This document shows positions 57,200 to 61,766 of a DNA stretch of 64,000 nucleotides, in pieces. The notes beneath the pieces are model-generated. The model saw only the letters and a list, made by a program, of their open reading frames with translations. It had not been told where the DNA came from and searched no databases. The stretch's first letter is position 1. Every line of letters begins with the position of its first letter. Position numbers and translations under genes: made by a program. Origin of the DNA: Candidatus Thiodiazotropha sp. (GTDB lineage Bacteria > Pseudomonadota > Gammaproteobacteria > Chromatiales > Chromatiaceae); contig JAIVEQ010000005.1 in the NCBI GenBank assembly GCA_023838465.1, forward strand, positions 1-64,000, written 5' to 3'.

Positions 57200-57470
57200 A
57201 GGCAAACTAGGGGGTGGGTTACTAGGGTTAAGATTTCTCGCTATGCTTGAAATGACAATTAATCAGAGGTTCCTTAACGATAAATATACAAATAACAGAC
57301 ATGACGCTTAATATGTGAAAATTAGGCATATCAATTTATATTGTGTTCATCTCAGTCCATTTAAAGTGGGATACTTGATTAATTATTCATTGAGAAATAG
57401 TTTGATAGTCAGGAAATCCAGCAACCTGGGATCCTATGTAATGGAAGACTCATATCGTGTTCTATTAATA

Positions 57471-58310
57471 ATGAAGCGACTTATTTGGATAATGGCTGCT
57501 ATGGCATGGGCTGGCACAGTCACTGCGCAACCCCTTGTTCTAGGCATACACCCCTATAGACCTCATACCGAATTACAACAAATGTTCGCACCTCTTGCGG
57601 ACTTTTTAAGTCAGCGTACAGGTCGGAATGTTGAAGTAAGGATAGGTGAGTCTTATCAGTCACACTTCAATGCGATCGTACACAGCCAGGTTGATCTTGC
57701 ATTCATTGGACCGGCATTGTTTGTACAAATGACACAGAGTCATGATATGCCTAACCTATTAGCTAGGCTAGAAGTCAATGGACATTCTACTTTTACTGGA
57801 AAGATTATTACCAGGCAGGGTAGTGGCATTCATGCCATAGAAGACCTCGCACAATGTCATTTTGCGTTTGGCAGCTCCTCCTCGACGATGAGCCACCTGG
57901 TTCCAAGACAGATGATGTTTGAAGCGGGCATAGATGTTGATGACTTGGCAGGCCATCAGTTTTATAGCAGCCACAATAATGTAGCCCTCGCAGTACTTGC
58001 TGGAGATGCCGATGCAGGGGCTGTAAAAGAGGCTGTGTTTGAGAAGTATCGTCTAAAAGGAATTGTATCCATCGCCACCACACCGGAGATATCCGAGCAT
58101 CTGTTTATTGCGCCTGCTGGTGCAGATCAGGCATTGATTGATATGCTTCGTCGGCATTTATTGAGTCTGACTGCAGAAAGCCCGGAAACAAAGCCGATTT
58201 TATCTCCAATCAAGAAGACCGCGACTGCGCTGGTAACTGCAGATAATATGGATTACCAAAAGCTGAGAGAAATCCTTACTGCCCTCAGAAATCGAGGCGT
58301 TGTCGAGTGA
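57471..58310 (+). CDS. PhnD-like periplasmic binding protein
   Basis: A 279-residue exported protein with a signal peptide (about residues 1-20, ending TVTAQ) and the phosphate/phosphonate-binding (PhnD/SsuA-like) fold: LVLGIHPYRPHTELQQMFAPLADFLSQRTGRNVEVR, then GPALFVQM and CHFAFGSSSSTMSHLVPR. No ABC permease follows. Its stop overlaps the GTG of a GGDEF/EAL gene, so it probably senses a ligand for that protein. An in-frame ATG at 57441 is an alternative start. Confidence 0.82.
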   Translation: MKRLIWIMAAMAWAGTVTAQPLVLGIHPYRPHTELQQMFAPLADFLSQRTGRNVEVRIGESYQSHFNAIVHSQVDLAFIGPALFVQMTQSHDMPNLLARLEVNGHSTFTGKIITRQGSGIHAIEDLAQCHFAFGSSSSTMSHLVPRQMMFEAGIDVDDLAGHQFYSSHNNVALAVLAGDADAGAVKEAVFEKYRLKGIVSIATTPEISEHLFIAPAGADQALIDMLRRHLLSLTAESPETKPILSPIKKTATALVTADNMDYQKLREILTALRNRGVVE

Positions 58311-58782
58311 AGCGGAACTGGCACATGCCAACCCTAACCTGGGTAGTGCTTGCAACGCTTGTCTTCATATTACTCCTATCCGCAGCAATGGGATTAGTTG
58401 TCAGGCGGGAGTTTCAACAACAACTCAATCTTGCAGAAGAGTTGGCGCGAGGTCAAATGGCGGTGATTTCTTTCATCGCTGAAACTGAACTTCAGAAAGG
58501 GAACTATGACACGCTCTCCTCACTGCTCGAGCAATGGGCGGGCAAGCATAAGGAGATTGATGAGATCAAACTGATCTCTCGAAACGGTTTTGTGATTGCC
58601 AGCTACGGCCCGCATCAACCTTCTGATCGACGTCACGTTCTTAATACGGAGATTCCTTATTCCTATCGTGGTCAAGCGAAGCTCATGTTGGCTCTGAGTC
58701 TGGAAAACGCCTATACCAGCACTTGGCGGTTGGCTGTACAAATGATGGTTATAATAGTGCTAATTTCCGGTATGTTTACACT

Positions 58783-59065
58783 CGCTGAGCGCCAAGGAAG
58801 GCTGAAAGCCGAGGCGGTTAGTCCCCGGTAGGCGTGAGGCGAGACTGTAGACCCGTCGTGCCTTGCGCCAGAGGGGATGCAAAGCGAGCATCCGAACACG
58901 GCGTCCAGTCATTTGGGAACTGACGGCGGAGTGGTCACGAGCTTGCGATGTGATCACGTAGTGTCAGTGACCAGGACCGTCCGGGGCACTAATAGGTTGT
59001 CAAAGATCGAGTGTCTTTTAGGCCTGGGACGCCTAAAAGACATCACGAGATCGAAGACTCACTTG
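58783..59065 (-). mobile_element. 283-bp structured element, copy 1 (inverted relative to host gene)
   Basis: This is the reverse complement of copies 2 and 3, with no difference I can find. Read on the minus strand it begins CAAGTGAGTC and ends GGCGCTCAGCG. Joining the flanks restores the helix segment GMFTLLTYLF. There is no target duplication, and the boundary is uncertain by one base. It contains no credible protein gene. Confidence 0.9.
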
Positions 59066-59901
59066 TCTTACCTATCTCTTTCTTTCTCGTCGCTATGAGG
59101 CGTATCTGCTTTCTCTTAGTGTAGAAGAACTGCGAGATTCGGAGTCTCGTAATTTGCGACTTGTTGCATACCCACGGGAAAATCCTAACCCAATTGCCGC
59201 CTTTGATCTGGAAGGAAAAACGACTTTTCGAAATCCAGCCTTTTCTCAACTCATGCGTACACTCAATACTACAGATCCTGGAGCTGTTCTGCCCGAAAAG
59301 CACGTGTCATTCCTAAGCCGCATTCGTGGGGGTGAAAAGCAGTTGTTTGGAGAAAAAATTGTAGGTGATAGACACATGCTTGCCCACTATCACATGATAG
59401 ACGTGGCAAAAGAGATTTATGTCTATCTTCAGGATATCACTGCTCAGCGAAGCGCAGAGAGGGCTTTGCGAAAGGAGCGTAACCAGGCTCACACCACGTT
59501 AGCATCTATTGGTGATGGTGTGATAACGATCAATATGGATGGGCAAATTATCTATCTCAATGCGGCTGCAATAAAACTGTGCCGAACTGATGTACAGAAT
59601 GCAACCGGAAAGCACCTATCTGAGGTGGTCAAGCTCATGGACGAAGACCAATTGTGGCCTATAGAAACTTTAATTACTAAATGTCGTTTGAGTTCACCCA
59701 GTCAAGTTGTGAATGAGGAGGCATCACTTTTACTGTCTGAGGGGGATGGTATGCATGTACACGTAACAGCTACCAGAATCTTTAGTCAGGAAGATGATGC
59801 TGGAGGTATTGTCATTGTACTTCGTGATGTAACTCGAGAACGACGCCTGCAGGAAGAGTTACACCGTCAAGCCAGCCATGACAGTTTAACGGAACTGATG
59901 A

Positions 59902-60184
59902 CAAGTGAGTCTTCGATCTCGTGATGTCTTTTAGGCGTCCCAGGCCTAAAAGACACTCGATCTTTGACAACCTATTAGTGCCCCGGACGGTCCTGGTCAC
60001 TGACACTACGTGATCACATCGCAAGCTCGTGACCACTCCGCCGTCAGTTCCCAAATGACTGGACGCCGTGTTCGGATGCTCGCTTTGCATCCCCTCTGGC
60101 GCAAGGCACGACGGGTCTACAGTCTCGCCTCACGCCTACCGGGGACTAACCGCCTCGGCTTTCAGCCTTCCTTGGCGCTCAGCG
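59902..60184 (+). mobile_element. 283-bp structured element, copy 2
   Basis: Starts CAAGTGAGTC and ends GGCGCTCAGCG. Stems visible by eye: GTCTTTTAGGC/GCCTAAAAGAC (59926-59936 with 59944-59954); GACGG...TGGTCAC with GTGACCA...CCGTC (59986-60000 with 60029-60045); GGATGC/GCATCC (60074-60079 with 60087-60092); GGCT-TTC-AGCC (60157-60167). Subterminal hairpins near both ends, no terminal inverted repeat and no target duplication resemble non-autonomous IS200/IS605-type elements. Family membership is inference. Confidence 0.9.
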
Positions 60185-60585
60185 ATCGTAGTGCATTTGA
60201 ATCACACCTTGAGAGTGCCCTTGAATCTGCACGCCACAGAAATCATGAACACATTCTCTGTTTCATGGACTTGGACCAATTCAAGGTGGTCAACGACACA
60301 TGTGGACATGTGGCGGGTGATGAATTGTTGCGCCAGTTAGCCAGAGTGATGCGGAAACATTTCAGAGGCAGCGATGTGCTTGCCCGTATTGGTGGTGATG
60401 AGTTCAGCTCAATCTTAATAGACTGTCCACTACCACGGGCCATTGAGCGAATAGATTCATTACGGGAGGAGGTTCAAGAACACCACTTTAATTGGGAAAG
60501 TCATAGTTTTCGTGTCAGTCTCAGCATAGGCGTCGTTCCTATCAATCAGTACAGCGAGAATATTGTACAGTTGATGAGTACAGCA

Positions 60586-60868
60586 CAAGTGAGTCTTCGA
60601 TCTCGTGATGTCTTTTAGGCGTCCCAGGCCTAAAAGACACTCGATCTTTGACAACCTATTAGTGCCCCGGACGGTCCTGGTCACTGACACTACGTGATCA
60701 CATCGCAAGCTCGTGACCACTCCGCCGTCAGTTCCCAAATGACTGGACGCCGTGTTCGGATGCTCGCTTTGCATCCCCTCTGGCGCAAGGCACGACGGGT
60801 CTACAGTCTCGCCTCACGCCTACCGGGGACTAACCGCCTCGGCTTTCAGCCTTCCTTGGCGCTCAGCG
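60586..60868 (+). mobile_element. 283-bp structured element, copy 3
   Basis: Same sequence and orientation as copy 2. Flank joining restores LMSTA-DAACYSAK, the normal end of a GGDEF domain. Its right half is open in the frame of the EAL segment, giving a continuous frame from an ATG at 60752 to the gene's stop. Direct copies 2 and 3 enclose only 401 bases of GGDEF core. Confidence 0.9.
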
Positions 60869-61766
60869 GATGCTGCCTGTTATTCAGCGAAAGATTCAGG
60901 GCGCAATCGGATAACTGTTTATGAAAGAGATAGTGCCACAACGAAACACCGATTGGGTGAGATGCAATGGGTTTCGCGTATCAATAGTGCACTTGAAGAA
61001 AATCGATTCGTTTTGTATGCACAGCCTATAGTTGATTTGCATGCTGAAGGTTCAGTGATTGTAGGTGTAGAAATTCTGGTTAGGATGACTGCCCCAGATG
61101 GAGAACTTATCCCGCCTGGCGCCTTCCTACCGGCTGCTGAACGATACGACTTGATAGAGCGTATTGACTACTGGGTAATAGAACGTGTTATGCAAATGCT
61201 GGCAGAGTGTGATGGTGATTATCCCGATTGCTTTATCAACTTATCGGGCGCAACGCTTAGTCGAAATCATATTGCTCCTTACCTGAAAAAAATGTTTGAT
61301 AAATATCATATCAGTCCTGAAAAATTGACTTTTGAGGTGACTGAGACAGCCGCAATACAGAATCTCTCCAGTGCCCTGACAATGATTCGAGAATTACGTG
61401 AACTGGGTAGTCGCTTCGCATTGGATGATTTTGGCTCAGGCCTCTCCTCATTTGGTTATCTAAAGAACCTACCTATCGATTTCCTCAAAATAGACGGTAT
61501 GTTTGTTAAGGATATGGATACAGATCCTTTAGATAAAGGCATGGTAGAGGCTATCAAAACTGTAGCTGACACTATGAAATTGACCACAATTGCCGAGTTC
61601 GTTGAAAATACTGAGGTTCTGGAGGAACTACGAAAGGTCGGTATCGATTTAGGCCAAGGATACGGTATCGCTCATCCCAAGCCCTTTGCGGAGTTTATCT
61701 CTGGTGGCAAGGATAGCAATGTTGTATGGTTCTCAACTTGATCTCATCTGTTTGTGGATGATGTAC

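What the first reader, a model, noticed from the sequence alone, without database searches (positions are those of the whole stretch)
58307..61741. Three identical 283-bp elements interrupt one GGDEF/EAL gene, and exact removal restores the gene
The segments left after removing 58783-59065, 59902-60184 and 60586-60868 total 2586 bases, exactly 862 codons with stop, and read through canonical family motifs at every junction (GMFTLLTYLF, LTELMNRSAFE, LMSTADAACYSAK). No bases of the host gene are lost or duplicated. Three independent scarless insertions of the same element into a single 2.6-kb gene is very unusual. It points to strong local targeting, local hopping, or a reversible DNA-level switch of a c-di-GMP gene.
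Basis: seen in the sequence. Interest (0 to 1): 0.92.

Follow-up and report, generated by a model that had tools for sequence, protein, structure and literature searches.

The report
Scarless jumping DNA riddling bacterial genes
An identical 283-letter DNA element sits complete at 79 places in this bacterium's assembled genome, each time with a G as the fourth letter beyond one end; it is likely a gene-less jumping element moved by a still unknown enzyme, so its three landings in one signalling gene are probably part of a genome-wide spread and not a switch.

Summary
Three identical 283-bp copies (the first reversed) split a PAS-GGDEF-EAL gene. An intact orthologue in a same-genus genome aligns over 861 of 861 residues without a gap, so the insertions are scarless. 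The interpretation needs correcting: the gene is not special. The genome holds 79 complete, identical copies at 79 sites, plus 6 cut by contig ends. 51 of the 79 lie well inside a long frame, in both orientations (23 and 28). The fourth base beyond the right end is G at 79 of 79 sites. Relatives of the element occur in 20 of 96 genomes of the same family and in eight other families of the class, with up to 359 end hits in one genome and the same G rule. One strand has a conserved fold (32 of 51 pairs change on both sides). I read it as a non-autonomous element, probably moved in trans by an HUH-type single-strand nuclease. The enzyme was not found: Y1, Y2, TnpB and RT genes do not track the element, and no replication-strand bias was seen. 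Three copies in 2.2 kb has P=0.06 under random placement, though close pairs are in excess (P=0.00015).

The parts
58307..61741 (+). Host gene, PAS-GGDEF-EAL protein, split into four pieces (58307-58782, 59066-59901, 60185-60585, 60869-61741)
   Evidence: intact orthologue in G007, 861/861 aa aligned, 0 gaps
58783..59065 (-). Element copy 1 (283 bp), reverse orientation
   Evidence: 100% identical to copies 2 and 3; empty in G007 by protein alignment
59902..60184 (+). Element copy 2 (283 bp)
   Evidence: empty site in G007
60586..60868 (+). Element copy 3 (283 bp)
   Evidence: empty site in G007
58779..58782 (-). Target tetranucleotide of copy 1 (AGTG read in element orientation): NNNG just outside the right end
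60185..60188 (+). Target tetranucleotide of copy 2 (ATCG): NNNG
60869..60872 (+). Target tetranucleotide of copy 3 (GATG): NNNG
59902..59905 (+). Left-end tetranucleotide CAAG of the element (CTTG as last 4 nt on the other strand); also fits NNNG
   Evidence: G at position 4 of the left end at all 136 distinct sites paired there; two relatives read by eye differ
60147..60181 (-). Terminal hairpin at the right end (helix 1), 3 nt inside the proposed cleavage position
   Evidence: 95.2% of cells paired, 4 of 8 pairs changed on both sides
59926..59954 (-). Subterminal hairpin near the left end (helix 8 and one further pair)
   Evidence: 98.5% of cells paired, 7 of 10 pairs changed on both sides

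Best explanation
The three inserts are copies of a 283-bp mobile element, predicted to be non-autonomous, that is present complete at 79 sites of this genome and likely moves by a single-strand cut-and-paste reaction catalysed in trans by an unidentified, probably HUH-type, nuclease. Shown: copies identical in sequence; insertion without target duplication, so that removal restores the gene; G at +4 from the right end; conserved fold on one strand; same ends and same rule in relatives of the element. Inferred: the strand written 5'-CNNN^CGCTGAGCGCC...CTTG^-3' folds when single-stranded, is cut after a C-NNN tetranucleotide at both ends (CNNN in the host at one end, CTTG of the element at the other), is released as a circle, and is joined into another CNNN site. 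The three landings in this gene are probably part of a recent burst with some local clustering and most likely inactivate the gene.
For: 79 complete copies, all 283 bp and identical, at 79 different sites, plus 6 copies cut by contig ends. No repeated host bases at the junctions; G007 empty sites. +4 is G in 79 of 79, in 133 of 136 distinct sites of the fetched family members, own copies included, and in 68 of 69 distinct sites in a 649-kb sample of G016. Both ends share the pattern C-NNN^. Fold: 93.9% of cells paired, 32 of 51 pairs with changes on both sides, 0 of 500 shuffles as good, slid controls at most 13 pairs. The strand is suggested by G-U against A-C: 59:10 on the minus strand, 37:28 on the plus strand, each on its own consensus structure. 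Head-to-tail array in G036, where the next copy's left end supplies NNNG. The described IS200/IS605 logic (target tetranucleotide flanking the left end, final tetranucleotide at the right end, subterminal hairpins, circular ssDNA) was read as passages of PMC6006769.
Against: No mobilising enzyme found. Y1 transposase genes are absent from 5 of the 20 element-bearing genomes, among them G016 with 359 end hits, and are as common in the 76 genomes without the element (60 of 76) as in those with it (15 of 20). In G000 the only Y1 gene lies 0.7 kb from a copy and in G053 three Y1 genes lie 3.7-5.4 kb from a copy (not tested for significance), but none of the other 30 Y1 loci fetched has a copy within about 1.5 kb. 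No significant strand bias against local GC skew: 64 of 116 copies, P=0.31 (the G000 copies with long flanks lean weakly, 35 of 56, P=0.08), whereas IS608-type elements favour the lagging-strand template. Only one target base is invariant, whereas IS200/IS605 members use a fixed tetra- or pentanucleotide. The helix pairing the last bases CTTG with an internal CGAG has little covariation. Conserved G-U pairs could mean an RNA function instead of ssDNA folding.
Confidence: 0.5

Rival explanations
1. A double-strand site-specific recombinase (tyrosine, serine or DEDD type) excises and inserts the element as a dsDNA circle; the NNNG offset is part of its crossover.
For: No target duplication, no loss of host bases, no replication-strand bias, circle-like equivalence of both ends.
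Against: In G000 the left tetranucleotide is the same CAAG in all 79 copies, so no crossover or coupling bases are picked up from each target; only one base of the target is fixed; the strand-specific fold is not expected. No recombinase family was surveyed.
Confidence: 0.2
2. RNA-mediated movement: the minus-strand RNA is a structured or ribozyme-like RNA that reverse-splices or is reverse-transcribed into DNA, perhaps also splicing out of transcripts.
For: Strong covariation with conserved G-U pairs on one strand; in G016 a full copy joined to a part copy that keeps its left end but lacks its right part, twice.
Against: G016, with 359 end hits and rated 100% complete, has no RVT_1 match, and 9 of 20 element-bearing genomes have none. 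No intron or other Rfam family reaches its gathering score on the element or its relatives, and the weak matches listed without that limit are unrelated families. Copies in genes are 28 to 23 by orientation, and the window gene has both, so splicing of one strand cannot rescue them.
Confidence: 0.15
3. Domesticated REP-type system: the single RAYT-like Y1 gene of G000 mobilises the element.
For: The only Y1 gene found in G000 (C4:140332-140664) has two copies 0.7 and 2.5 kb downstream; in G053 three Y1 genes lie 3.7-5.4 kb from copies.
Against: The Y1 gene carries its own different flanking palindrome; no copy lies within about 1.5 kb of the 30 other Y1 loci fetched; 5 of 20 element-bearing genomes lack Y1, and Y1 is equally common without the element.
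Confidence: 0.12
4. Reversible DNA-level switch of the c-di-GMP gene.
For: Exact removal restores the frame.
Against: The same element sits complete at 79 sites, many in unrelated genes; three copies in mixed orientation would all have to leave.
Confidence: 0.02
5. Assembly artefact.
For: 148 contigs; two of the six contig-edge copies carry one substitution each that no complete copy has, so identity of the complete copies may be inflated by consensus building.
Against: 79 different flanks obeying one rule, 60 long frames spanning the cleaned junctions, and the same ends and rule in genomes of one contig such as G036.
Confidence: 0.01

Closest known systems
IS200/IS605 insertion sequences and their non-autonomous derivatives (PATE-like, recalled)
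   Same: No target duplication, exact restoration of the site, structured subterminal hairpins on one strand, a tetranucleotide rule outside one end and a matching tetranucleotide at the other end
   Different: No Y1 gene tracks the element; one invariant target base instead of a fixed tetra- or pentanucleotide; no lagging-strand bias seen; the terminal hairpin begins 3 nt from the end, leaving no room for a 5' guide tetranucleotide
REP/REPIN elements with RAYT transposases
   Same: Very high copy number, palindromic folds, no enzyme of their own; GTAG/CGTC-tagged REPs can also split genes (passages of PMC3733652)
   Different: 283-300 bp multi-branched fold instead of 21-65 nt hairpins (size); no GTAG-type foot at the ends; in G000 mostly inside genes; a copy within 1.5 kb of a Y1 gene at one locus only
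HEARO / OMEGA RNA of IscB elements (RF02033)
   Same: About 300-nt structured RNA-like mobile element with a one-sided short flank motif (size and ATGA/GTGA motif recalled)
   Different: No HEARO match for the own element even at E up to 10; no effector gene inside; IscB genes not surveyed
MITEs of DDE transposons
   Same: Short, gene-less, high copy number
   Different: No target duplication and, by eye, no terminal inverted repeats
IS91 / rolling-circle (Y2) elements
   Same: One-sided tetranucleotide preference, no target duplication; CTTG is also a Y2 nick motif (all recalled)
   Different: No Y2_Tnp match in this genome, nor in 10 of the other 19 element-bearing genomes

Membership tests
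IS200/IS605 (Y1) derivative | Insertion without target duplication, exact empty site | tested here: met
IS200/IS605 (Y1) derivative | Fixed tetra- or pentanucleotide target next to one end | tested here: inconclusive
   only one of four bases invariant (79/79), next strongest 58/79
IS200/IS605 (Y1) derivative | Y1 transposase in the same genome | tested here: not met
   15 of 20 element-bearing genomes have any Y1 (60 of 76 without the element); G016 with 359 end hits has none
IS200/IS605 (Y1) derivative | Lagging-strand preference | tested here: inconclusive
   64 of 116 by local GC skew, P=0.31 (a proxy, low power); 35 of 56 in G000 copies with long flanks, P=0.08
REP/RAYT | Elements flank the cognate RAYT gene | tested here: not met
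   1 of 31 Y1 loci has a copy within about 1.5 kb
HEARO / IscB OMEGA RNA | Match to RF02033 | tested here: not met
HEARO / IscB OMEGA RNA | IscB gene in the genome | not tested
TnpB OMEGA element | TnpB gene in the genome | tested here: not met
   2 of 20 element-bearing genomes; none in G000
IS91 (Y2) | Y2 transposase in the genome | tested here: not met
   9 of 20 element-bearing genomes and 7 of 12 others; none in G000
MITE of a DDE transposon | Target site duplication | tested here: not met
MITE of a DDE transposon | Terminal inverted repeats | tested here: not met
   by eye on the ends: CAAGYGAG against CGCTGNCC; no inverted-repeat program was run
Self-splicing intron (group I or II) | Match to an intron covariance model | tested here: not met
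Self-splicing intron (group I or II) | Copies in genes lie in the sense orientation | tested here: not met
   28 and 23
Self-splicing intron (group I or II) | Splicing of the transcript | not testable with these tools
   needs RNA

The most novel reading that the evidence does not exclude
A broadly spread gammaproteobacterial family of about 283-300-bp, gene-less, RNA-like folded elements that insert scarlessly by a CNNN^ rule and reach some 359 copies per genome, mobilised by none of the known single-strand or RNA-guided transposon enzymes (Y1, Y2, TnpB) nor by a reverse transcriptase, but by an unrecognised enzyme, possibly an ordinary host protein.
Probability: 0.3. Interest if true: 0.88.

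Novelty: new variant of a known kind. Interest (0 to 1): 0.68.

Why it matters
A structured, gene-less element at up to about one copy per 8 kb (359 right-end hits in about 3.0 Mb; 76 full copies in 649 kb) that splits genes without scars would be a strong force of gene loss in these bacteria and is easily missed by annotation: the split gene appears as fragments, and no Rfam 15 family matches. The near-invariant base rule plus a covarying fold makes the mechanism directly testable, and the lack of a tracking transposase points to an enzyme still to be found.

Tried and rejected
Rfam: in the window only a tRNA and in nine loci with relatives nothing reached gathering score; laxer scans of one own copy and one G016 copy listed 5 and 2 unrelated weak matches. 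Plasmid and phage collections: no match. IMG/VR scan with one conserved 19-mer: one contig. Autonomous longer copy: none in G000 by the two end patterns, which give 81 and 83 hits, 79 of each belonging to the complete copies and the other 2 and 4 lying at contig ends; none noticed in 649,253 bases of G016, chosen mostly from contigs with copies (76 full and 21 partial hits; 5 partial hits away from edges, of which two are nested copies, one is a diverged copy and two are overlapping scraps at one place). The Y1 gene of G000 has its own unrelated flanks. L224: an ORF-bearing insertion inside one copy looked like the autonomous form, but I read it as an IS110/IS1111-type insertion into the element (my reading of the ORF, not run against a library). 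L249: a truncated end with 96% identity in another family, followed by other IS-like sequence. Replication strand bias: none significant. Promoter or terminator pattern in copy 2: none. Papers: ten counted searches, seen as listings with the starts of abstracts; passages read in PMC6006769, PMC9755519 and PMC3733652. I recognised this element in none of the listings; that is no proof that it is unpublished, and no insertion-sequence database was held. G036 strands: one search listed only 20 of 108 places, so I made no strand test on that list.
Full report
OBSERVATION. The three segments are 283 bp long and identical; copy 1 is reversed relative to copies 2 and 3. Removing them leaves 2586 nt that read as 861 codons plus stop. 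The same-genus genome G007, in which one search found no match to the element, carries an intact orthologue that aligns to the joined protein over 861 of 861 residues, 589 identical, without a gap. At DNA level the blocks around copy 2 are exactly adjacent in G007 and those around copy 3 overlap by 4 bases, both consistent with a skip of 283 bp in the window; around copy 1 that search gave no G007 block, so it rests on the protein alignment. Pfam finds PAS, GGDEF and EAL domains in the pieces and in the orthologue.

THE ELEMENT IN ITS GENOME. G000 (4.54 Mb, 148 contigs, rated 100% complete) holds 81 exact hits of a right-end 29-mer and 83 of a left-end 27-mer searched with up to 3 mismatches. 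After fetching them, 79 copies are complete: all are 283 bp, all identical, at 79 different sites. Six more are cut by contig ends; two of these show one substitution each, so the perfect identity of the complete copies may be partly the assembler's consensus. With the element removed, 60 of 79 junctions lie in an open frame of at least 180 codons (30 in each orientation; median best frame 354, median second-best 67, only 2 second-best frames reach 180). In 51 of these the junction is at least 20 codons from either end, in 48 distinct frames, orientation 28 and 23; one other gene carries two copies. One-sided pieces of 30 of the 60 frames were scanned with NCBIfam: 10 gave no family; the best names of others include chemoreceptors, flgE, RND efflux parts, rmlA, PEP carboxylase, anaerobic ribonucleotide reductase, sigma-54 regulators and a hybrid kinase, most below the curated whole-protein cut-offs because only pieces were given. 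One copy lies, as I read it, just before the start codon of sufB.

TARGET RULE. There is no target duplication. Read in element orientation, the fourth base beyond the right end is G in 79 of 79 (local G content 24%), the first is A in 58 of 79, and the fifth is rarely G (2 of 79). Across the fetched family members the +4 base is G in 133 of 136 distinct sites, own copies included; two of the three exceptions (L142, L160) look like wrongly trimmed ends to me, one (L264:8890) is real; one of the 136 (L264, 395 bp) pairs the ends of two neighbouring copies. In a 649-kb sample of G016 it is 68 of 69, with the fifth base G in 2 of 69; in G034, 28 of 28 pattern hits, with one mismatch allowed anywhere. 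Outside the bacterial family, 10 of 11 right ends printed read NNNG by eye; one (L250) is too diverged to read. The element's own left end also reads NNNG at the 136 sites (CAAG 106, TAAG 19, others 11), although by eye relatives from two other families read CGAT and GGAT there. On the other strand this means that both proposed cuts follow a C-NNN tetranucleotide.

DISTRIBUTION. Matches at E 0.001 or better: 20 of 96 genomes of the same family, G000 included, the longer ones about 70-83% identical; at 1e-5, 10 of 369 genomes of the class, G000 and one same-family genome included, so eight further families (the class is Gammaproteobacteria by what I recall of the named relatives). Some of those are partial; profile matches reaching both ends were recovered for six of the eight. 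Right-end pattern hits, one mismatch allowed: G016 359 in 3.0 Mb, G036 108, G034 28, G080 2. G036 has a head-to-tail array of three. The S. velesiana symbiont has short copies with differing internal deletions but intact ends. In G016 two sites hold a part copy joined to a full one.

FOLD. On 21 diverse copies the minus strand gives a consensus of 46 pairs, 31 with compensatory changes. With the end helix added: 51 pairs, 93.9% of cells paired, 32 pairs changed on both sides, 141 double-change cells against 42 in shuffles, 0 of 500 shuffles as good on any measure; sliding the partners drops pairing to at most 46%. G-U against A-C mismatches is 59:10 on the minus and 37:28 on the plus strand, each on its own consensus structure (22 sequences). 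The minus strand of the own copy also folds better (z -4.9 against -3.2). A terminal hairpin starts 3 nt from the right end. The last bases CTTG can pair with an internal CGAG (86.7% of cells), which would resemble the guide pairing of IS200/IS605 ends, but only 1 of its 5 pairs covaries, so this is tentative.

MECHANISM. Gene-less, scarless, one-sided base rule, strand-specific fold, matching tetranucleotides at both ends: this is the logic of single-strand HUH transposition as described for IS200/IS605 (passages of PMC6006769), and I commit to a trans-acting HUH-type enzyme at about even odds. Against it: Y1 genes are missing from 5 of 20 element-bearing genomes including G016, and are present in 60 of 76 without the element; Y2 is missing from 11 of 20 including G000; TnpB is in 2 of 20; RVT_1 in 11 of 20, not in G016; no significant replication-strand bias by local GC skew, 64 of 116, with a weak lean in G000 copies with long flanks (35 of 56, P=0.08). 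Y1 genes do lie near copies at one place in G000 (0.7 kb) and three in G053 (3.7-5.4 kb), but not within about 1.5 kb at the 30 other Y1 loci fetched. The mobiliser is therefore unidentified. IscB, relaxases, plasmid- or phage-type Rep proteins and recombinases were not surveyed.

WHY THREE IN ONE GENE. Placing 85 copies at random in 4.54 Mb gives three within 2.2 kb in 6.3% of 20,000 simulations, so a triple somewhere is no great surprise; but 11 neighbour distances are at most 2 kb against 3.07 expected (P=0.00015), so insertions do cluster. That fits local hopping or regional exposure; it does not single out c-di-GMP genes.

VERDICT. Real, and broader than reported: a new, widespread variant of non-autonomous scarless elements. 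The switch idea has no support here.

Noticed in passing
L075:3324-4010 (G000:C4:140332): The only Y1 (RAYT-like) transposase gene found in the genome, with its own AAGGGGTCAGTACCC-type flanking palindrome, lies 0.7 kb before one element copy and 2.5 kb before a second.
   Followed up: partly
L212, L213, L214 (G053): Three Y1 genes of G053 lie 3.7-5.4 kb from element copies, and a TnpB gene sits near one of them; significance not tested.
   Followed up: no
L197-L202 (contig ends of G000): A different repeat, ...TTCGTACACTGTAAATGCCTACAAGGC..., sits at the ends of several small contigs of the same genome.
   Followed up: no
L224:7501-8713: In G077 one copy of the element is itself split by an insertion carrying a transposase-like ORF, which I read as IS110/IS1111-type.
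   Followed up: partly
L309:1-1960; L305:1391-1900: In G016 a full copy directly follows a part copy (first 196 or 183 bp) whose remainder is missing: possible trace of the transposition or repair mechanism.
   Followed up: partly
L086, L094, L117, L120, L121, L125, L130: Solemya velesiana symbiont copies have differing internal deletions with intact ends, so the middle seems dispensable for insertion (or these are the only copies that short reads could span).
   Followed up: partly
L217, G016:C31, G016:C55: Several G016 copies recur at equal spacing (1176, 1198, 1913 bp) with the same right-flank tetranucleotide, suggesting tandem segment duplications or assembly repeats bounded by the element.
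   Followed up: no
window 57315-58310: A phosphonate-type substrate-binding protein gene directly upstream overlaps the start of the GGDEF/EAL gene: a likely sensor-effector pair.
   Followed up: no
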